Below, piece by piece: positions 9,460-64,000 of a stretch of DNA of 64,000 nt. Source of the DNA: Aquificota bacterium (GTDB taxonomy: Bacteria > Aquificota > Aquificia > Aquificales > Hydrogenothermaceae); contig JAADDZ010000020.1 of the NCBI GenBank assembly GCA_013153635.1, forward strand, positions 35,379 through 99,378, in the 5' to 3' direction. The position numbers and the translations under genes were made by a program. The notes below the pieces were generated by a model. That model was not told the origin of the DNA and made no database searches. It saw only the letters and a program-made list of their open reading frames with translations. Position 1 is the stretch's first letter; every line of letters starts with the position of its first letter.

Positions 9460-12150
9460 TTAGTTAGTATTTTTTGAAGGTAGATGGTCTTTTGGACAAA
9501 TGTCTAAAAATTGGCAGTAGTTACACTCGTCAGTTTGTATAGGGGTAAAGTTTTTACTGATTAATCTGTGTAGTATCTCTTTTAGGTGTTGGTCTAATTC
9601 TTCAGTTGGAGATACTGTATAGTAGGTGCGTCCTGTTTTGTCATTTATGGATATGATTCCTATATGTTTTACTTTTTTTCCTTTTTGCTCTAGGAGCTGT
9701 TTATATATGATAAGCTGGACATATTTGGTTTGTACCTCTTTTTTTATATTTTTAGGAGGAGTTTCTCCTGTTTTGTAGTCGTATATGTAGTAGTTATCGT
9801 TATCTTGGTCTACTCTATCTAACCTTCCTATAAACATTCTGTTTTTTAGTCTTTTCTCTAAAAACTCTTTTGCTATTTTTATATTTTGGGCTTTTAGTCT
9901 ATCTATATCTTCTTGTAGGAAAAGTATCAATCTATTGAACAAGTCATAGGCTCGCCTCTCTTCAAAAGGTCTGTAAGAGGGGGGTATCTGGGATAAGAAA
10001 TGGTTTATACCTTTTTTGTCGTTTATACCTTCGTAAAACTGCTTTTTTAGTTTTTGTTTATCAATGATAGGTTCGTCTAAATCTAACTCTAAGAAAAACT
10101 CTTTTAGTATTTCGTGGATAAGTAACCCTTTTTCATAGGGAGGAATTTTGGTTCTGTCTAAGATGGGATATTCTTCTATCTGTAGTATCTTTTCCAAAAA
10201 GAATCTGTATGGACAAACTGCAAATAGCTGAAAATCCGTAGCATACATAGGAAATCTCAATTCAATATCTATCACAAAATCTTCAGTGGTAGGATTTTCA
10301 TACTTTTGTTTTCTCTCTAATATGCTTTTTAGGTCTTTTAGAATCTCTTTTAGCTCGTTTGCGTATTGGATTCTAAACTCTTTTTCTAGATATATCTGTT
10401 TTGGAGTATAAAGATGCTTTTTTTCTTTGTAGAACCAATCTGGATAAAGAATCCTTTTTATCTCTTCTAAAAATGTAGAAGTAGATGTTTGCTGGGTATA
10501 GATAGAGCCTGTCAGATAGGATAGATATATATTTTTGTTTTTATCAAAGATAGCTGAAAAGTTGGCAAGTTGTTGAAAGATGATATGAAATTTGTAATCA
10601 AGGTTGTTTAGCTCTAGAGGTGATGTTAATAATTCTTCTCTTAGTGGTTTTGGAAATATGTCCTGATTTAGACCGACGAAGAAGATATATTCAAAATTAT
10701 TTCCCTCTGCTCCTGTTGGTTTTAGAACAGAGATGATATTCCCTCTCTGTTTTTTGGTTTTGTTTTCTTTTTGGAAAAAGGTTTTTATCACTTTTGTAAA
10801 ATCTTCGTACGATATTTCTTTAAAAAGCGTTTTATAAAAGGAATTTGTTTTCAAAGAAAAAAGTATATCTTCTAGATATGCTCTCTCTTCGCAAGGTTTA
10901 ATAAACTCTTTTATGAAATTATCAAAAAATGTTACATAGTTTTCTATACTGTCTTTATCTGGCAGGTCTAAAAGCTGTTGTATAAGAGATAGAATCACTG
11001 GATTTTTGATATATTTCTGCCACTGTTTAGGGTCTTCTATTGAAGGCAAAGAGATGATGTGTGCCTCTAGCTGTTCTATATCTGGTATAGAAAAAAGAGT
11101 TTTTGAAAGTATATGAAGTATACTCTCTTTTGAAAAAGATTTTAGTTTTATCTCAAAGAGCATGTAGAGTTTTCTATAGTTTGGACTGTTTATGTATCTG
11201 TTCTCTTCAGCGAGATAATAAGGTATGTAGTACCTATTTAGTATCTCTTTTAAAAATGGAAGGTATCTATTAAAATCTGGGATTATTATACATATCTTAT
11301 CCCAAGAGACTCCGTTAATAACGAGGTGTATAATCTCTTTTGCTACGTTTTCTATCTCTTCTTTTTCTGAATTTGCTTCCATAATTTTTATACTGTGATT
11401 TTCCAATTTTGGGATATTGTAATCGTGTTTGAAGAGGTAACTTGCTATCTTTGAGTTTTTATCGAGTTCTTTTTGAGTTACTGCAAAACTTTCAGTTAGG
11501 GTTTCATAAAAATGTCTCACTTCTTTAAAATGGTTGTAGTTTTGGTAATAACCACTATCAAATATAAATGGAGCAAAAACGAGTAATTCCCTTTTGGTTA
11601 ACTTTTTTAATTTTTTAAACAGAGCTTGATGTAAGCTAGGTACAGATTTTATCCCAAATATAAAAAGATAATCTGTGAAAGGTTCTTTGTCTTTCTTTAT
11701 CGCTAATTCGTGTACATCTTCTCTATCAAAGTAACCGTTATCTTTTAGAAATATTTGATATTTTGTTAATATGTTCCTTACCCAGTTTGATTTTATCTTT
11801 TGAAAAGGGATTTGATACTCTTTTAACTGCTGGAGAAGGAGGTTAAAATCTTCACTTAGAGTATCTAATTTTATACCTTCATCGTAAAGCAATTTTTTTA
11901 AGATAAGTTCTTTTTCAAAATCTCCCAGAGGCTCTATATTTGTTAATTTTTTGGAAATATCGATAAGAGTATAAAATTCTGTATTTGCCAGTATCTCTAA
12001 ATTCTCGGCAAGAGTCTCCTTTAGGTAGATTTTCTGCTGGTTTGTATGCACTACAAACGTTAGTTTGGAAAGAGGTTCTTTTTGTTTTATCTGTTTTATC
12101 TTTTTGGTTAAAACTGTTTTTAAAAAATCATAATCACCACAGAAGAACAT
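9460..12150 (-). CDS. AddB-like PD-(D/E)XK nuclease/helicase-like protein
   Basis: An 896-aa protein resembling AddB. The long N-terminal part looks like a superfamily I helicase relic without a clear Walker A. The C-terminal RecB-type nuclease has GLLIHEILKEFF, FIGRLDRVDQ and YIYDYKTGE (Asp and Glu-Lys of the active site) near residues 770-790. One Cys near 646 (CPYRFF) plus CNYCQFLDIC near 876-885 form the AddB-type iron-sulphur cluster set. I choose ATG at 12150, with GAGGAA upstream, over the GTG at 12153. It is coupled to the exonuclease gene upstream. No AddA partner is visible in the window. Confidence 0.75.
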   Translation of the reverse strand: MFFCGDYDFLKTVLTKKIKQIKQKEPLSKLTFVVHTNQQKIYLKETLAENLEILANTEFYTLIDISKKLTNIEPLGDFEKELILKKLLYDEGIKLDTLSEDFNLLLQQLKEYQIPFQKIKSNWVRNILTKYQIFLKDNGYFDREDVHELAIKKDKEPFTDYLFIFGIKSVPSLHQALFKKLKKLTKRELLVFAPFIFDSGYYQNYNHFKEVRHFYETLTESFAVTQKELDKNSKIASYLFKHDYNIPKLENHSIKIMEANSEKEEIENVAKEIIHLVINGVSWDKICIIIPDFNRYLPFLKEILNRYYIPYYLAEENRYINSPNYRKLYMLFEIKLKSFSKESILHILSKTLFSIPDIEQLEAHIISLPSIEDPKQWQKYIKNPVILSLIQQLLDLPDKDSIENYVTFFDNFIKEFIKPCEERAYLEDILFSLKTNSFYKTLFKEISYEDFTKVIKTFFQKENKTKKQRGNIISVLKPTGAEGNNFEYIFFVGLNQDIFPKPLREELLTSPLELNNLDYKFHIIFQQLANFSAIFDKNKNIYLSYLTGSIYTQQTSTSTFLEEIKRILYPDWFYKEKKHLYTPKQIYLEKEFRIQYANELKEILKDLKSILERKQKYENPTTEDFVIDIELRFPMYATDFQLFAVCPYRFFLEKILQIEEYPILDRTKIPPYEKGLLIHEILKEFFLELDLDEPIIDKQKLKKQFYEGINDKKGINHFLSQIPPSYRPFEERRAYDLFNRLILFLQEDIDRLKAQNIKIAKEFLEKRLKNRMFIGRLDRVDQDNDNYYIYDYKTGETPPKNIKKEVQTKYVQLIIYKQLLEQKGKKVKHIGIISINDKTGRTYYTVSPTEELDQHLKEILHRLISKNFTPIQTDECNYCQFLDICPKDHLPSKNTN

Positions 12151-12986
12151 CACAGTTCCTCTATAGTTGGCTCTTGTTTCTGTATCTGTTCAAAAGAGCC
12201 AAACTTATATACATCTCCAAGTAGATACTTGTTTATATAGGCAAAAAGCATAGCTGTAGCTTTTACATCTTCGGCACAGTATCTAGCTATCTGGGTTAGA
12301 TTGTTTTCATTAAAAAGCTGAAAAACTATATCCCCCTCTCCTTCTTGTTTTACTGGAATATTACACAGATAGCACAGCTTCTTTAGGGATACTTTTCTAC
12401 CTCCAAATATATCTACAGAAATATCTATATGATAAGGGGTATATCTGTTTGTATATCGGGGAAAAACTTCTTCCCATTTATCAAACTTGTCCATATACAT
12501 GTTTATAAAACGCCTTATACTAAGGCTTTTTTTGTTTGTGTCTAATCTCTGTTTGTCATCTATGTATCTCATATATTTTAAGGTTCTAAGCTTCAAAACA
12601 GGCAAATCAAAATCTTTTCCGTTAACTGTTATCAAAACTGGAAAGTTCTTTATATAGATTCTGTTTTTATCTTTGATAGTAAATTGGTGGGATTTTCTAA
12701 AAACCTCCCAAAACTTAGATATGACCTTTTTTTCATCTTTACTTACATATGCACAGAAAGAATCTATCTTTTTATTTTTAACTAAAAGATAGCTAAAGGC
12801 TACTACCTTGTGGTAGGGATTTGGTAGGAATTCTCCATTTTCTTTCTTTTCCTTTTCTCTGCTGTCTGCTATAGATTGAAACATATCTTCATCTATAACT
12901 GTTTCTATGTCTAAAACCAGAAAGCTAAAAAATCTATCCCCAAATTCTTTCCTTTTTTGGAGTATGTCTTCCCCTGTCCATTCCAT
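12150..12986 (-). CDS. PolB-type 3'-5' exonuclease family protein
   Basis: Resembles the predicted 3'-5' exonucleases related to the PolB proofreading domain. The DEDD-type motifs are visible: FLVLDIETV near residues 22-30 (D26, E28), [15 protein letters not shown] in the middle and [12 protein letters not shown] near the C-terminus. The reading frame also opens at a TTG (13029-13031), but the ATG at 12986 starting [10 protein letters not shown] is more likely and gives 278 aa. It overlaps the AddB-like gene, suggesting a shared role in DNA end processing, and is divergent from uvrB. Confidence 0.75.
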
Positions 12987-60017: not shown

Positions 60018-60061
60018 TGTTATATTTGTTATTTATTTTAAATTTCAAACTAATAATAACA
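60018..60061. repeat. Possible diverged fourth copy of the island repeat
   Basis: TGTTAT (60018-60023) and ATAACA (60056-60061) form an inverted repeat spanning 44 bp, compared with TGTAATAC/GTATTACA over 42 bp in the clear copies. It sits at the left edge of the island, just where a truncated coding frame begins. Weak on its own. Confidence 0.25.
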
Positions 60062-60512
60062 TACAACAAAAACTCTTGAAGTAATATCTAATGTTTTACC
60101 ACCACAAACACAAGAGAATCCTCAAAAAGTAATTAACAATCCAAAAGTAATTCTATGGGACGAAATCAAGGAAACAAAAAATTCTGGAGAAACTGATATG
60201 ATTGAGTTCTTAATAAAGTCTCAAGTTCATAACATTTTGCAGAAGTTAATAACTATAAAAGAAGGTTTAGAAAATAAAGAGTTTGAAAATCTTGCAACAG
60301 CTATTGATTATGTTTTTGCCCCTGCAGAGATAGATATGTTCATTGGCTATATGGAGCAGTTTAACATAAATACTGCAGATGACCTGACAAAAACACTAAA
60401 CCAGCTTGGTATAAACCTTGAAAATGAGATAAACCAGATAGGAAAAGAGCTTATAGATGATGTGATAAGATACCTAAATGGAGAGGAACAAAAAGAGGTA
60501 AAAAATGAGTAA
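60060..60512 (+). pseudogene. 5'-truncated gene X upstream of HEPN module A
   Basis: The ATG at 60198 starts a 104-residue frame (MIEFLIKSQVHNILQKLIT...NGEEQKEVKNE) with GGAGA upstream, so a short protein may be made. The same frame continues open and sensible for 46 codons upstream to a stop at 60057 (e.g. LPPQTQENPQKVINNPKV) but has no ATG, GTG or TTG there, so the gene probably lost its 5' part. Mostly helical; no family recognised. Its stop overlaps the HEPN-A start. Confidence 0.55.
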
Positions 60513-60849
60513 AGGGTTTTTAAAAGTTGCCGAGGAGTTATATAAGTTAGGGGTAAATTCTAGAGGAGATAAGAGAGAGTTTGCCTTCAGGTCTGCTATA
60601 AGTAGAGCTTATTATGGGGTTTTGTGGTATGTAAGGGATTTTTATAACCTAAAAGGAACTGACCTTCACGGAATGGCAAGGGCTGTACTGGGAAAAAGGG
60701 ATATTGAATTAAAACTTTTGCTGGATAGTTTAGGAAAAGTAAGGAATTATGCAGATTATCAGGAAAATGCCCCTATCAAATTTGACGAAGGTAATACAAG
60801 ATATTATATTAAAATTGCTAAAAAAATAATTTCAGGTGTAAGAAAATGA
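60505..60849 (+). CDS. HEPN-domain protein, module A
   Basis: 114 aa, all-helical. AFRSAISRAYYGVLWYVRDF and KVRNYADYQ match the HEPN (UPF0332-like) pattern with the RxxADY motif near the C-terminus; the classical catalytic Rx4-6H is not clear. HEPN proteins are commonly RNase toxins paired with a nucleotidyltransferase, but here the downstream partner is a different small protein. It overlaps X (8 bp) and the partner gene (ATGA). Confidence 0.75.
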   Translation: MSKGFLKVAEELYKLGVNSRGDKREFAFRSAISRAYYGVLWYVRDFYNLKGTDLHGMARAVLGKRDIELKLLLDSLGKVRNYADYQENAPIKFDEGNTRYYIKIAKKIISGVRK

Positions 60850-61115
60850 GTGCTGTTATAAGTAAAAAACAAAAAAAGAAAAAGGTAAGAGTAGAAAAAT
60901 TAGAAGAATATTTAAATTCTTTATTAAAGAATTATGGAATAGATGGGGAATATAATATACCTGATGAGCCTGATTTTGAAGGTGATTATTTCATAGTAAT
61001 TACTCCAAAAAACAAAATATCCATAGATAGAGCGATAGATATATCAACAAAAATAAATTTGGAAATTCACAAAAAGTTTGGAAGTAATATTTACATAAAT
61101 ATTATACCAAAATAA
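60846..61115 (+). CDS. Small partner of HEPN module A
   Basis: 89 aa. Basic N-terminus, then a predicted helix-strand-helix-strand pattern: GDYFIVITPKNKISIDRAID and IHKKFGSNIYINIIPK. No nucleotidyltransferase GSxxxG/DxD is present. Paralogous to the partner at 62615-62869 (SIDxAI...I(N/T)IxIP), so it is a conserved partner of this HEPN type, probably the antitoxin or its cofactor. Its stop is 4 bp before a 42-bp repeat. Confidence 0.65.
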   Translation: MSAVISKKQKKKKVRVEKLEEYLNSLLKNYGIDGEYNIPDEPDFEGDYFIVITPKNKISIDRAIDISTKINLEIHKKFGSNIYINIIPK

Positions 61116-61118
61116 CCC

Positions 61119-61160
61119 TGTAATACAATCTATCTCTAGATAGTCCCAAAATATATTACT
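61119..61160. repeat. 42-bp imperfect palindrome, copy 1
   Basis: TGTAATAC at 61119-61126 and ATATTACT ending at 61160 bracket a 26-bp centre including CTATCTCTAGATAG. It sits between the stop of HEPN partner A and the stop of a minus-strand operon. Same length and ends as copies at 62876 and 63755. Confidence 0.65.
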
Positions 61161-61401
61161 AACATCTTCTAATTTCTAATCTTATTTCTCTTTCATAATT
61201 TACTGTTTCTACTTTAGTGTTAGATAAGCTAAAGTTTATAAACCTAAAAAACTCTTTTTTATCTACCTTTACTTTCATCTCAAAAAAACTGTCTTCTTTT
61301 TGGAGTGTAAGGTTTACATAATCTATAAATGAGCTTATATATGTAACCTGCCAGCCTTGCTCTACAAGCTTTTTTAGTTCTTTTAAAGTGATAGGTTTCA
61401 T
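61159..61401 (-). CDS. Hypothetical protein, third gene of minus operon
   Basis: 80 aa. N-terminal amphipathic helix KPITLKELKKLVEQGWQV, then beta-rich (MKVKVDKKEFFRFINFSL). No family recognised. The TAG stop lies in the last bases of repeat copy 1. Overlaps the next gene by 4 bp. Confidence 0.6.
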   Translation of the reverse strand: MKPITLKELKKLVEQGWQVTYISSFIDYVNLTLQKEDSFFEMKVKVDKKEFFRFINFSLSNTKVETVNYEREIRLEIRRC

Positions 61402-61646
61402 ATTTCTCTCCTTTTGTTGTATTTTTCTATATATGGTTCTATTTCTTTTTTAAACCAGTTAATAGCTTCTTGCTCTGTATTGAATCCTTTAGAATGTTCT
61501 GATATTGTAAAGTTTAGAAAAGGTTCATCTAAGGCTAGAGGGTCTAAGTAAAATGCCCAGTGGTATTGACCTATAACATATTTTAGTTTTATTGATTTTA
61601 CGTTCTCTAGATTTATTATTGTGTTATCATCAATGGTTATAAACAT
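61398..61646 (-). CDS. Hypothetical protein, second gene of minus operon
   Basis: 82 aa. The beginning (MFITIDDNTIINLENVKSIK) looks like a beta-hairpin, followed by FNTEQEAINWFKKEIEPYIEKY. Reminds of small phage or plasmid proteins with PH-like strands, but no family is certain. Coupled to the downstream gene by a 4-bp overlap. Confidence 0.6.
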   Translation of the reverse strand: MFITIDDNTIINLENVKSIKLKYVIGQYHWAFYLDPLALDEPFLNFTISEHSKGFNTEQEAINWFKKEIEPYIEKYNKRREI

Positions 61647-61656
61647 TTTTATCCTC

Positions 61657-61914
61657 CTAGATTTGTTTTTTTCTTTCTTCTTCCATTTTTACGGCTATAA
61701 AAGAAACTGCTTCTGATGTATCTTCAACGAATTGCTGAAAATTTCTTAGCATAGTAGTAAAAGCCCAAAGGTCATTTACTTCCAGCTTTCCTGCAGTTTG
61801 CCTTCTAAGTATTTCTAAAAAAGTGTAGTTTAAACCTTTTGCTATTAGCTGTAGCTGGTGTACTTGATGCTCCATGTCCAAGAGTTCTGTTGGGGTGTAA
61901 GTTTGGTTTTTCAT
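61657..61914 (-). CDS. Hypothetical helical protein, first gene of minus operon
   Basis: 85 aa, helical, Gln-rich (LLDMEHQVHQLQLIAKGLNY, NDLWAFTTMLRNFQQFVEDT). Family unknown. It is divergent from the RHH/HEPN-B operon across 115 bp that contains two GTTAAC sites, so both operons may be controlled by the RHH protein. Confidence 0.6.
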   Translation of the reverse strand: MKNQTYTPTELLDMEHQVHQLQLIAKGLNYTFLEILRRQTAGKLEVNDLWAFTTMLRNFQQFVEDTSEAVSFIAVKMEEERKKQI

Positions 61915-61934
61915 TTTAGCCTCCTTGTTTATTT

Positions 61935-61999
61935 GTTAACATTTTAACTTATTAAAAATATAAATTGTTATAGTTTTGTTGTCAAGTTTTTTTGTTAAC
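61935..61999. promoter_or_regulatory. Two GTTAAC sites in the divergent promoter region
   Basis: TTTGTTAAC occurs at 61932-61940 and TTTGTTAAC again at 61991-61999; GTTAAC itself is palindromic. Their 59-bp spacing brackets the AT-rich region that must hold both promoters, consistent with an RHH operator pair. Not tested. Confidence 0.4.
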
Positions 62000-62029
62000 T
62001 TTATAATTAATTATCAAATTGGAGGTTTT

Positions 62030-62194
62030 ATGGTGAAAGAAAGAAAAAGTAAAGATATTTTTGCGGTAAGAATTGATAAAGACTTAGTTAAAGAGTTTAA
62101 AAAATTGGCTATTGAACAAGACAAAAAGTATGGAGAACTTCTAGAAGAAGCCATAAAAGACCTACTTGAAAAGTATAAAAAGAAAGAAAAATGA
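62030..62194 (+). CDS. Ribbon-helix-helix DNA-binding protein, module B
   Basis: 54 aa from the ATG at 62030 (GGAGGT upstream; an earlier in-frame start at 61976 lacks a site). KDIFAVRIDKDLVKEFKKLA then KKYGELLEEAIKDLLEKY is a short RHH fold. Overlaps HEPN-B by 4 bp. Likely autorepressor and/or antitoxin of the module. Confidence 0.75.
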   Translation: MVKERKSKDIFAVRIDKDLVKEFKKLAIEQDKKYGELLEEAIKDLLEKYKKKEK

Positions 62195-62631
62195 GCCGAA
62201 AGACTAAATATCTAGAAGTAGCACAGATAATAAGAAGCTCTATAAAGCAAACACGAAACAAACAATTAAAAGAATATTTAGGTAGAACAGCTATATCCAG
62301 AGCTTATGAAGCTGTTTTTTTAGAAATTTATTATTACATTACAGATGACCTTAAAACATCATATACCCAGATGAAAAGGATAGCTAAGGAATATTACAAA
62401 CAAAAAGGTTTAAAAGTTCCTATAAATAAGCATACTGCTGTAGGTGCTTATATTGCTATGAATTATGGTGAGGTTTATGGGAGAATGTATAATGAACTTA
62501 GAAATATGAGGAACAAGGTTGATTATTATATTGAAATAGGTATATTAATAACTATCCCAATGGTAGATATGTATATCAAAATAGCAGAAATAATTTTAAA
62601 TGAGGTTGTTTCTTATGAAGATTTTAAGTAA
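62191..62631 (+). CDS. HEPN-domain protein, module B
   Basis: 146 aa, all-helical, longer than module A by an insertion in the middle. RTAISRAYEAVFLEIYYYI and NELRNMRNKVDYYIE align with AISRAYYGVLWYV and KVRNYADY of module A, then YIKIAEIIL matches YIKIAKKII. The Ala of RxxADY is Val here. Order RHH-HEPN-partner, each start inside the previous gene. Confidence 0.7.
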   Translation: MSRKTKYLEVAQIIRSSIKQTRNKQLKEYLGRTAISRAYEAVFLEIYYYITDDLKTSYTQMKRIAKEYYKQKGLKVPINKHTAVGAYIAMNYGEVYGRMYNELRNMRNKVDYYIEIGILITIPMVDMYIKIAEIILNEVVSYEDFK

Positions 62632-62869
62632 AACCAAAGAAAAAGAAAAAATACTTTTAGCTATAAAAAAACTTCTTGAAAAAGAAAATATATCTGGAGA
62701 AGCTGTCATTTTAGAAGATGAAGAATTAAAAGGAGCATTATCCATAAAAGTTAGAGCTACAAACATAAAAAGTATAGATAAAGCTATTAAAAAGACAAAG
62801 GAATTGAATGAAAAAATAAACAAACTATTCCCAGATAAATATATTACTATTACTGTTATACCAGCATAA
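62615..62869 (+). CDS. Small partner of HEPN module B
   Basis: 84 aa from the ATG at 62615, with GAGG upstream (62600 is an alternative start). Very Lys/Glu-rich. Same layout as the module A partner: GALSIKVRATNIKSIDKAIK, KINKLFPDKYITITVIPA. The shared SIDxAI and terminal I(N/T)I-IP strand identify the family; function is unknown. The stop lies 6 bp before repeat copy 2. Confidence 0.6.
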   Translation: MKILSKTKEKEKILLAIKKLLEKENISGEAVILEDEELKGALSIKVRATNIKSIDKAIKKTKELNEKINKLFPDKYITITVIPA

Positions 62870-62875
62870 TCTATT

Positions 62876-62917
62876 TGTAATACGATTTATGGACCAGGAG
62901 CTACAGAATGTATTACA
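62876..62917. repeat. 42-bp imperfect palindrome, copy 2
   Basis: Ends TGTAATAC (62876-62883) and GTATTACA (62910-62917), a perfect 8-bp inverted repeat over a 26-bp centre. The minus-strand reading of this copy (TGTAATACATTCTGTAGCT) matches the + strand of copy 3 at 16 of 19 positions. The stop of the holin-like gene is inside it. Confidence 0.7.
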
Positions 62918-63231
62918 CTTTTCCTGACCTTTTCTCCAGTGTTCTAAGACCAAAATAAAAGGCAAAAACACCACCTATTAGGTAGTAATCAAATTCTGTG
63001 AGGGGAATACCGTAAACCTTTGCCCCTATGTAAAACCCCACTGCAGATAGGGCTATTGTTGGTCTTACTAATGCCCTTAAAGATTTTACCCATCTATATA
63101 CGCCTTTTTCTTTTAATTCTATCTCATATAAAGCCCTTGCATTTTGCAAATCCTGAAATACAAGCTTTTTCTCCTCAAGGGCTTGCTCCAGTAATGTTAT
63201 TTTTAGCTTTAATTTTATCTCTTCTTTTTAT
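62913..63231 (-). pseudogene. 5'-truncated holin-like gene
   Basis: The frame is open from about 63231. A TTG at 63149 gives 78 residues, but the upstream 27 codons also read sensibly (e.g. LLEQALEEKKLVFQDL), with no ATG, GTG or TTG in them, so the true start is lost. Coiled N-terminus, then two membrane helices: ALVRPTIALSAVGFYIGAKV and YLIGGVFAFYFGLRTLEK. This resembles three-span phage/GTA holins. A prophage remnant is likely. Confidence 0.45.
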
Positions 63232-63352
63232 ATGTATTTGGAGAAATATTTGTTTGTCTTTAATGCTTTTACTCTTTAGATAGTAATAAGCCTGCAGTTT
63301 AGGACTTGAAATGAGTATAAATAACTTGAACGGATTTGAAATTGATTATGAA

Positions 63353-63649
63353 TTAAGATTTAGCTTTTAAAAGTTTATTCTCTGGATAAAAAAGAGTTTC
63401 TATCTGTATGTCCTCATCTAATTCTTCCCAATGAATACCGTATCCATGTCCTATAAGTCTGTAATTTTCCCTCTGTTTTTTTGTGGCTTTTTTAAGCTTT
63501 GGAAATCTATCAATAGGAACACATATTATTTTGCTCTCCTTTAGCTTTACATACATGTATTCCTTATCAAACCATACTTCTTCTGCAAGGGGTATGTCAT
63601 CTTTTTCCATCTGTTGTATTATCTTACTTTTTTTCCTTGAAGTACTCAT
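63353..63649 (-). CDS. DUF2442 family protein
   Basis: 98 aa. EVWFDKEYMYVKLKESKIIC followed by VPIDRFPKLKKATKKQRENY and RLIGHGYGIHWEELDEDI is the DUF2442 signature. These proteins are usually encoded just after a DUF4160 protein, as a presumed toxin-antitoxin pair. Here the upstream partner is only a fragment. Confidence 0.8.
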   Translation of the reverse strand: MSTSRKKSKIIQQMEKDDIPLAEEVWFDKEYMYVKLKESKIICVPIDRFPKLKKATKKQRENYRLIGHGYGIHWEELDEDIQIETLFYPENKLLKAKS

Positions 63650-63764
63650 TCCATTTCTCCAGAAGTTCTTTCTGATACTGTTTAACTATTGTTAATATAT
63701 AATCTATTTCTTTGAAAGCGGCAGAAATAGCAAAAATAAAATATCCACCAAGACTGTAACACAT
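63624..63764 (-). pseudogene. DUF4160-like C-terminal fragment
   Basis: 46 codons from ATG 63764 to TAA 63624. The second half IDYILTIVKQYQKELLEKWN then EYFKEKK looks like the C-terminus of DUF4160 proteins (a helix ending in ELLxxW). The first part (MCYSLGGYFIFAIS) does not match the family and starts inside repeat copy 3, so the gene was apparently cut at the repeat. It overlaps the DUF2442 gene by 26 bp, the usual arrangement. Confidence 0.5.
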
Positions 63765-63796
63765 TCTACAGCTTATAGTTCTTTAACTGTATTATA
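63755..63796. repeat. 42-bp imperfect palindrome, copy 3
   Basis: Ends TGTAACAC (63755-63762) and GTATTATA (63789-63796), with one or two mismatches from copy 2 but the same 42-bp length. It cuts the DUF4160-like gene and lies 4 bp left of a 12-bp match to the tRNA-Leu gene. Confidence 0.65.
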
Positions 63797-63800
63797 AAAA

Positions 63801-63812
63801 GCCAAGGGATTT
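63801..63812 (-). repeat. 12-bp direct repeat of the tRNA-Leu anticodon-arm region
   Basis: GCCAAGGGATTT occurs here and at 63984-63995 in the tRNA-Leu gene, same orientation. On the tRNA strand it covers the 3' side of the anticodon loop and stem into the variable arm. It may be an attachment-site remnant. A nearby AAGGGA/TCCCTT inverted repeat (63804-63832) uses part of it. Confidence 0.4.
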
Positions 63813-63944
63813 ATCGTAAAGTACAGTCCCTTAATATGCCTCAAATATGCATAAAATCTTGTTTTTATCCTGAAAAAAACCTTTTCACAACGATATTACT
63901 TTTTTGTCCATTCGGCGGTATATTTTTTAGCGGAAGTTATTGAG

Positions 63945-64000
63945 TGGTGCGAGCGGCGGGAGTCGAACCCGCACGGCCTTTCGGCCAAGGGATTTTAAGT
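63945..64000 (-). tRNA. tRNA-Leu (UAA), 3' part
   Basis: Read on the minus strand: anticodon loop CTTAAAA with UAA anticodon, long variable arm TTGGCCGAAAGGCCG typical of tRNA-Leu, T-arm GCGGGTTCGACTCCCGC, acceptor end CGCTCGC and an encoded ACCA. The 5' half lies beyond the window. It marks the right border of the accessory island. Confidence 0.9.

What the first reader, a model, noticed from the sequence alone, without database searches (positions are those of the whole stretch)
60018..63812. Cassette-like island bounded by a 42-bp palindromic repeat family
Three copies (61119-61160, 62876-62917, 63755-63796), each exactly 42 bp, share TGTAAYAC and RTATTAYW ends, and a weak fourth lies at 60018-60061. 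They divide the island into blocks: truncated X + HEPN-A + partner; unknown minus operon + RHH + HEPN-B + partner; holin-like remnant + DUF2442/DUF4160 fragment. Gene stops sit 4-6 bp outside or inside the repeats, and three genes are cut at or near them. This is what a site-specific or homologous shuffling of small toxin-antitoxin cassettes would leave, similar in spirit to pdif modules or integron cassettes but with a different site. Alternative: the palindromes are simply terminators between convergent genes, but the constant length and the copy 2/copy 3 sequence match go beyond that.
Basis: partly seen in the sequence, partly recalled or inferred. Interest (0 to 1): 0.8.

Follow-up and report, generated by a model that had tools for sequence, protein, structure and literature searches.

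The report
Viral 42-bp module-joint repeat, decayed provirus
The island is the wreck of a small virus integrated beside a leucine tRNA gene in a heat-loving bacterium; its 42-bp palindromes are a virus-borne repeat family that marks the joints where whole gene blocks, including toxin-antitoxin-like pairs, have been inserted or swapped, though how the swapping happens is not shown.

Summary
The three 42-bp copies are real (0 expected by chance) and belong to a family confined to the host's family (Hydrogenothermaceae, named via related records). I found 14 near-complete copies (13 of exactly 42 bp, one 41 bp) plus one cut by a contig end; none elsewhere in the order. The 'weak fourth' copy is not a member.

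The island is a decayed provirus at tRNA-Leu(TAA). A fuller relative sits on another contig of the same genome (C16, 14.5 kb). That virus carries the site between its HEPN-partner pair and its holin gene, and directly upstream of its Xer-like recombinase operon; relatives carry a third copy beside the tRNA. About a dozen further remnants lie in relatives.

Arms (11 bp) are 82-85% identical between copies with unlike flanks (30-34%); the 20-bp centre varies.

So the copies are viral module-joint elements. Site-specific recombination is plausible but unproven; homologous recombination at terminator-like elements, or a regulator's binding site, remain live. It is neither an integron nor a pdif system.

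The parts
60063..60512 (+). C-terminal remnant of viral protein X (438 aa in C16), 5'-truncated; open part 60198-60512
   Evidence: 66% identity to C16 X residues 280-438 at C21:95441-95887; 79.5% DNA identity to C16
60505..60849 (+). HEPN-A (HEPN toxin candidate)
   Evidence: PADLOC HEPN_IX E 8e-7; aligned with the C16, L007 and L046 homologues
60846..61115 (+). partner A, 89 aa (putative antitoxin), alpha-beta-beta-alpha-beta fold
   Evidence: ORF; family members in many loci; AlphaFold2 mean pLDDT 84
61119..61160 (+). 42-bp site 1, joint partner A | early minus operon
   Evidence: same joint in L007 2192
61159..61401 (-). minus gene 1, stop codon overlapping site 1
   Evidence: 89% identical remnant in L007
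61398..61646 (-). minus gene 2 (DUF3622-like), homologue of C16 early gene 12552-12830
   Evidence: BLASTP E 2e-10; Pfam DUF3622
61657..61914 (-). minus gene 3, unknown
   Evidence: ORF; no family
61957..62007 (.). back-to-back promoter-like sequences between minus operon and RHH operon
   Evidence: 11 of 12 consensus matches on each strand; consensus scan only
62030..62194 (+). RHH antitoxin-like protein
   Evidence: Pfam Antitox_RHH E 1e-6
62191..62631 (+). HEPN-B
   Evidence: homologues in L100, L101, L102 at 57-70%
62600..62869 (+). partner B
62876..62917 (+). 42-bp site 2, joint partner B | holin
   Evidence: same kind of joint in C16 2442 and L007 2735
62913..63229 (-). GTA-type 3TM holin remnant: C-terminus intact, N-terminus lost
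   Evidence: 80% DNA identity to C16 2438-2795; C16 copy Pfam GTA_holin_3TM, PHROG holin
63353..63649 (-). DUF2442 protein, also present beside the remnant in L093
   Evidence: Pfam E 8e-19; L093 63%
63712..63759 (+). last 15 codons of a viral 'rep-like' gene (function guessed), stop codon inside site 3
   Evidence: 81% identity to C-terminus of the L045 238-aa protein
63755..63796 (-). 42-bp site 3, joint tRNA-Leu downstream region | rep-like gene
   Evidence: same joint in L045 228-269
63797..63944 (-). ~150-bp region downstream of tRNA-Leu, with hairpin AAGGGACT..AAATCCCTTGGC; found only in some genomes of the family
63945..64000 (-). 3' part of tRNA-Leu(TAA), cut by the contig end; 91 bp from here on identical to the end of contig C9

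Best explanation
The island is a decayed provirus of a small virus of Hydrogenothermaceae that integrates at tRNA-Leu(TAA). The 42-bp element is a virus-borne joint element: two conserved inverted 11-bp arms (TGTAATACAWT / AATGTATTACR) around a variable 20-bp centre, placed at the ends of the virus's gene modules. Shown: the family exists, was found only in this host family, keeps its arms whatever genes flank it, is cleanly present or absent at one joint, and a whole block (minus operon, RHH, HEPN-B, partner B) is present exactly between two direct copies in the window, and in shortened form in L007, and absent in C16. Inferred: the block is a reduced early/HEPN module of a second, related virus that entered by recombination between two copies of the element. 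Inferred, weaker: the agent is a site-specific recombinase, the best candidate being the Xer-like tyrosine recombinase whose operon starts 11 bp from one copy in C16. My split for the agent is about 0.4 site-specific, 0.4 general recombination at short shared sequences, the rest other. The HEPN-partner pairs are the cargo and seem to be kept under selection.
For: Chance excluded. C16 carries two direct copies, 2442-2483 and 11389-11430, the second upstream of the RHH-integrase operon. The integrase is a tyrosine recombinase, Pfam E 7e-32, nearest to XerA/XerC/XerD. Block gain between copies in window and L007 versus C16. Clean presence/absence at the partner|holin joint: the unit is absent in G048, G020 and G052. 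Arms 82-85% identical between copies with unlike flanks on both sides, flanks 30-34%. Provirus setting: viral sequence beside tRNA-Leu(TAA) in window, G044, G013, G001, G020; displaced tRNA 3' half, 69 bp identical, in G013. HEPN genes: nonsynonymous change far below synonymous, e.g. 0.08 versus 1.39 for G048 and C16.
Against: Integration itself uses the tRNA-Leu sequence, not the 42-bp site, so the recombinase may never touch the site. The 20-bp centre is too long for a Xer/Cre-type core of 6-8 bp (general knowledge). No reciprocal product (integrase|holin) was found. Only one block-insertion event is documented; window and L007 probably share it. Minus gene 1 is not detectably related to the C16 gene at the matching place, so the second-virus reading rests mainly on minus gene 2 and on HEPN/partner. 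C16 is cut off before its tRNA-side copy, so a three-copy virus is an inference from G044 and the window.
Confidence: 0.5

Rival explanations
1. The copies are bidirectional transcription-end elements of the virus. Because they are the longest shared sequences at module ends, general homologous recombination joins unlike modules there, as with the short boundary sequences of mosaic phages. No dedicated enzyme is involved.
For: Almost every copy lies at the 3' end of one or two transcription units and its TAA ends a gene. Several copies fold well: C16 copy a, L007 copy b, L046, L047, RNA z -3.6 to -6.4. Phage boundary sequences are a known idea (PMC3029335).
Against: No U-tract and no terminator call at any window copy. 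Folding is weak in the G001 copies and in several window copies. One copy (C16 11389) sits just upstream of the RHH-integrase operon. Arms vary without compensation in G001 (TGTCATAC against GTATTACG).
Confidence: 0.35
2. The copies are binding sites of a viral regulator, for example the RHH-like protein encoded next to C16 copy b, acting as operator or stoperator. Module joints coincide with them only because both lie between genes.
For: Conserved dyad arms at fixed spacing with a free centre suit a protein dimer; copy b lies upstream of that gene's start, with its ribosome-binding site between.
Against: Copies lie at gene ends rather than starts; block gain exactly between copies is not explained; the C16 protein matched no regulator family, so its RHH assignment is by eye.
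Confidence: 0.2
3. The 42-bp unit is itself a tiny mobile palindrome (MITE- or REP-like) that inserts between genes of this virus group.
For: Clean presence/absence at the partner|holin joint; nearly constant length.
Against: All strong copies lie in viral sequence, no target duplication was seen, no matching transposase is known, and the centre is too variable for recent copying.
Confidence: 0.08
4. A true viral integron-like or pdif-like shuffling system with its own recombinase and its own site type, moving HEPN toxin-antitoxin cassettes. This is the strong form of the site-specific branch of the best explanation.
For: A copy abuts a recombinase operon, a cassette lies between direct copies, and arms are conserved with a variable centre as in pdif (PMC13141974).
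Against: Integron and pdif sequence criteria not met; one insertion event only; no circle or reciprocal joint seen.
Confidence: 0.25

Closest known systems
dif/pdif modules of Acinetobacter plasmids (XerC/XerD sites)
   Same: Conserved 11-bp arms with a variable centre, blocks between copies, toxin-antitoxin cargo, a Xer-like recombinase near by
   Different: 42 bp with a ~20-bp centre instead of two 11-bp arms and a 6-bp spacer; different arm sequence; in a provirus; recombination not shown (PMC13141974)
Integron cassettes with attC sites, including those carried by phages (PMC9892861)
   Same: Imperfect palindrome after each gene block, one copy beside a tyrosine recombinase gene, TA cargo
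   Different: No R-box motifs in any of 14 copies; recombinase scores 79 against a cut-off of 265 for integron integrase
Short conserved boundary sequences at phage module joints
   Same: Short shared sequence at joints between unlike modules (PMC3029335)
   Different: Fixed 42-bp palindromic unit in several copies of one genome, with conserved arms and free centre
Proviruses integrated at tRNA genes
   Same: tRNA-Leu target, displaced tRNA 3' half, decay to remnants
   Different: Nothing unusual, except that the integrase gene seems to lie inside the element and not at its end (inferred from C16 and G013)

Membership tests
dif/pdif module | 11-bp XerC arm, 6-bp spacer, 11-bp XerD arm (28 bp) | tested here: not met
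   42 bp, arms TGTAATACAWT/AATGTATTACR, ~20-bp centre; pdif sites listed in PMC13141974
dif/pdif module | Recombination by XerC/XerD | not testable with these tools
   needs an assay
Integron | IntI-type integrase | tested here: not met
   TIGR02249 79 bits against cut-off 265; best model XerA-like, also below its cut-off
Integron | attC R-box motifs RYYYAAC / GTTRRRY | tested here: not met
   absent from all 14 copies, both strands; motif itself from general knowledge
Integron | Site folds as an imperfect hairpin with extrahelical bases | tested here: inconclusive
   strong in C16a, L007b, L045, L046, L047; weak in the G001 and decayed window copies
Intrinsic terminator | GC-rich stem followed by a U-tract | tested here: not met
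   no terminator call at any window copy
Phage module-boundary sequence | Same short sequence at joints between unlike modules | tested here: met
   unlike flanks on both sides: arms 0.82/0.85, flanks 0.30/0.34; left flanks partner, tRNA region or RHH-integrase; right flanks holin, early gene or rep-like gene
tRNA-integrated provirus | tRNA 3' part duplicated at the two ends of the element | tested here: met
   G013 C26 complete tRNA and C2 partial tRNA, 69 bp identical; in the own genome C9 and C21 share 91 bp, which alone could be a contig overlap
tRNA-integrated provirus | Genes related to phage lysis, structure and integration | tested here: met
   GH108 lysozyme, holin, integrase in C16; capsid protein not identified

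The most novel reading that the evidence does not exclude
A virus-encoded cassette-exchange system with its own site type (11-bp arms, 20-bp variable centre) and its own Xer-like recombinase, moving HEPN toxin-antitoxin modules among viruses and chromosomes of thermophilic bacteria: a third kind beside integrons and dif modules.
Probability: 0.25. Interest if true: 0.8.

Novelty: new variant of a known kind. Interest (0 to 1): 0.55.

Why it matters
[quoted passage not shown] A small virus group with a fixed, recognisable 42-bp element at its joints makes the question of how modules are exchanged directly testable. If the adjacent recombinase acts on it, viruses would have a cassette system comparable to integrons or dif modules. 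The work also reveals a provirus group in Hydrogenothermaceae for which I found no description; in 2020 no virus infecting this phylum had been isolated (PMC7689252).

Tried and rejected
Weak fourth copy at 60018: rejected. 42-bp site as the chromosomal attachment site: first favoured because G013's copy downstream of tRNA-Leu matches C16 copy b at 94% over 37 bp; rejected because the displaced tRNA half shows the exchange lies in the tRNA and the downstream region is not a general host feature. C16 as a closed circle: no end overlap; the rep-like gene runs off its end. Free relatives in IMG/VR: none for integrase, X, transglutaminase protein or rep-like protein. Pattern scans of IMG/VR and genome contigs: only four Aquificota hits share the core; others, many in Nostocales, have unrelated centres. 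CRISPR spacers of L007 and L046 against C16: chance-level matches only. Fold search of the partner: no match at E 0.001. Crossover mapping inside the sites: too few informative positions.
Full report
CHECK OF THE OBSERVATION. The pattern TGTAAYAC-N26-RTATTAYW occurs at 61119-61160, 62876-62917 (both strands) and 63755-63796 and nowhere else in the window; 100 dinucleotide shuffles gave none. Inverted repeats as such are common in this AT-rich window, so the sequence, not the palindrome, is the signal. The proposed fourth copy is not found by either family model.

THE FAMILY. In the own genome the exact pattern has only one further place, on contig C16 at 11389; a profile adds C16 2442. Profiles R1 and R2 and a pattern scan then find copies in G005 (two), G044, G003 (two), G013 (cut by the contig end) and G001 (four): with the window and C16, 14 near-complete copies and one partial, all in the host's family. 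In 112 genomes of the order nothing outside that family reaches E 0.001; one weak further hit (G041, E 4.5e-4) was not pursued. Records named identify some carriers as Hydrogenothermaceae or Aquificota metagenome-assembled genomes. Thirteen copies are exactly 42 bp; one is 41. Column conservation is concentrated in positions 1-9 and 34-41; the centre is nearly free.

WHAT THE ISLAND IS. C16 (14,543 bp) encodes X, a HEPN protein, a 95-aa partner, a GTA-type holin, a GH108 lysozyme, a transglutaminase-core protein, a tyrosine recombinase and a DnaC/DnaA-like ATPase, and by eye a LysM protein and two helix-turn-helix repressors: a small virus or provirus. The window island is colinear with parts of it: X remnant and HEPN start at 79.5% DNA identity, holin at 80%. 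The order X'-HEPN-partner-holin' recurs, complete or in part, at about a dozen further chromosomal places in the family, X and holin usually truncated, HEPN and partner mostly intact. HEPN and partner genes show purifying selection, though this includes viral as well as remnant lineages.

WHERE IT SITS. tRNA-Leu(TAA) adjoins viral sequence in the window, G044, G013, G001 (L092) and G020 (L099); tRNA-Leu(CAA) does so in L093. A ~150-bp stretch downstream of the tRNA is shared at DNA level only by G013, G020, G044, G048, G052 and the window's genome, whereas nearly all other genomes match only the tRNA itself: it is therefore likely viral. In G013 a partial tRNA from the anticodon loop onward, 69 bp identical to the complete copy, lies on another contig next to host genes: the usual mark of tRNA integration. 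The neighbouring viral end there begins an ORF resembling the first C16 gene (9 of 12 residues, not significant alone). So the attachment exchange is in the tRNA and not in the 42-bp site.

PLACES OF THE 42-BP COPIES. Copy a: between partner and holin genes (C16 2442, window site 2, L007 2735, L046, G001 x4; L047 has the same left side). Copy b: between an early minus-strand gene and the RHH-integrase operon (C16 11389). Copy c: between the tRNA downstream region and a rep-like gene (window site 3, L045; G013 left side only). Mixed joint: partner | early minus gene (window site 1, L007 2192). The genes reading into a copy commonly take their stop from it. Flanks are unlike between these classes while the arms stay the same.

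BLOCK GAIN. C16 has one copy between partner and holin. The window and L007 (another genus) have two, and between them an extra block: minus operon, RHH, HEPN-B and partner B in the window; a shortened form in L007. The block's second minus gene is homologous to an early gene of C16 that also lies on the right of a copy, its last two genes are again a HEPN-partner pair, and it has its own back-to-back promoter-like sequences: it resembles a reduced early-plus-HEPN module. Minus gene 1 has no counterpart in C16 at the matching place. At the partner|holin joint the 42-bp unit is absent in G048, G020 and G052, where TAACC runs straight into the holin end.

MECHANISM. Shown: a discrete viral element at module joints, with block gain between direct copies. 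Inferred: recombination at the copies. The recombinase encoded next to copy b is Xer-like (sequence), but the ~20-bp centre is longer than any Xer or Cre core known to me, and the same enzyme must presumably serve the tRNA site. General recombination at short shared terminator-like sequences explains the data almost as well. A regulator-binding role is not excluded.

COMPARISON. It works like pdif modules or integron cassettes only in the loose sense of blocks between repeated sites. Tested criteria of both fail (PMC13141974, PMC9892861). The closest description is the short boundary sequence of mosaic phages (PMC3029335), in an unusually standardised, palindromic, multi-copy form.

LIMITS. 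Most copies outside G001 lie on short metagenome contigs, several near contig ends, so long-range order (three copies a, b, c in one virus) is pieced together from several genomes. One insertion event is documented. No complete free virus was found in IMG/VR.

Noticed in passing
L006 (own genome, contig C16) 1-14543: Nearly complete small virus or provirus with lysozyme, holin, transglutaminase-core, KR-rich and unidentified structural proteins; no relative in IMG/VR by three of its proteins. Capsid type unknown.
   Followed up: partly
L143 1667-10809 (G004 C2): A 9-kb DISARM-type defence island (DrmA, DrmB, DrmC, DrmMII) lies between a complete and a partial tRNA-Leu(TAA): the same tRNA seems to be an integration hotspot for a defence island too.
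   Followed up: partly
L007 63-1023 and L046 1722-3398: CRISPR arrays with nearly the same repeat lie next to the HEPN remnants in two genera; in L046 the X fragment ends within a few bases of the first repeat.
   Followed up: partly
L092 5235-5290: A half 42-bp site lies between two tandem partner genes and seems to supply the ribosome-binding sequence AGGAG of the second.
   Followed up: no
L160, L164, L166, L169, L171, L177 and others (Nostocales): An apparently unrelated palindrome family TGTAATACAYGG..CCATGTATTAC of the same 42-bp span occurs in Nostocales genomes.
   Followed up: no
L045 955-1983: A TnpB-like (IS605 OrfB) gene, named by eye, directly follows the rep-like viral gene beside tRNA-Leu in G044.
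   Followed up: no
L006 9376-10186: A possible HigB/RelE-like toxin and a preceding small gene lie beside the recombinase in C16 (weak Pfam match).
   Followed up: no
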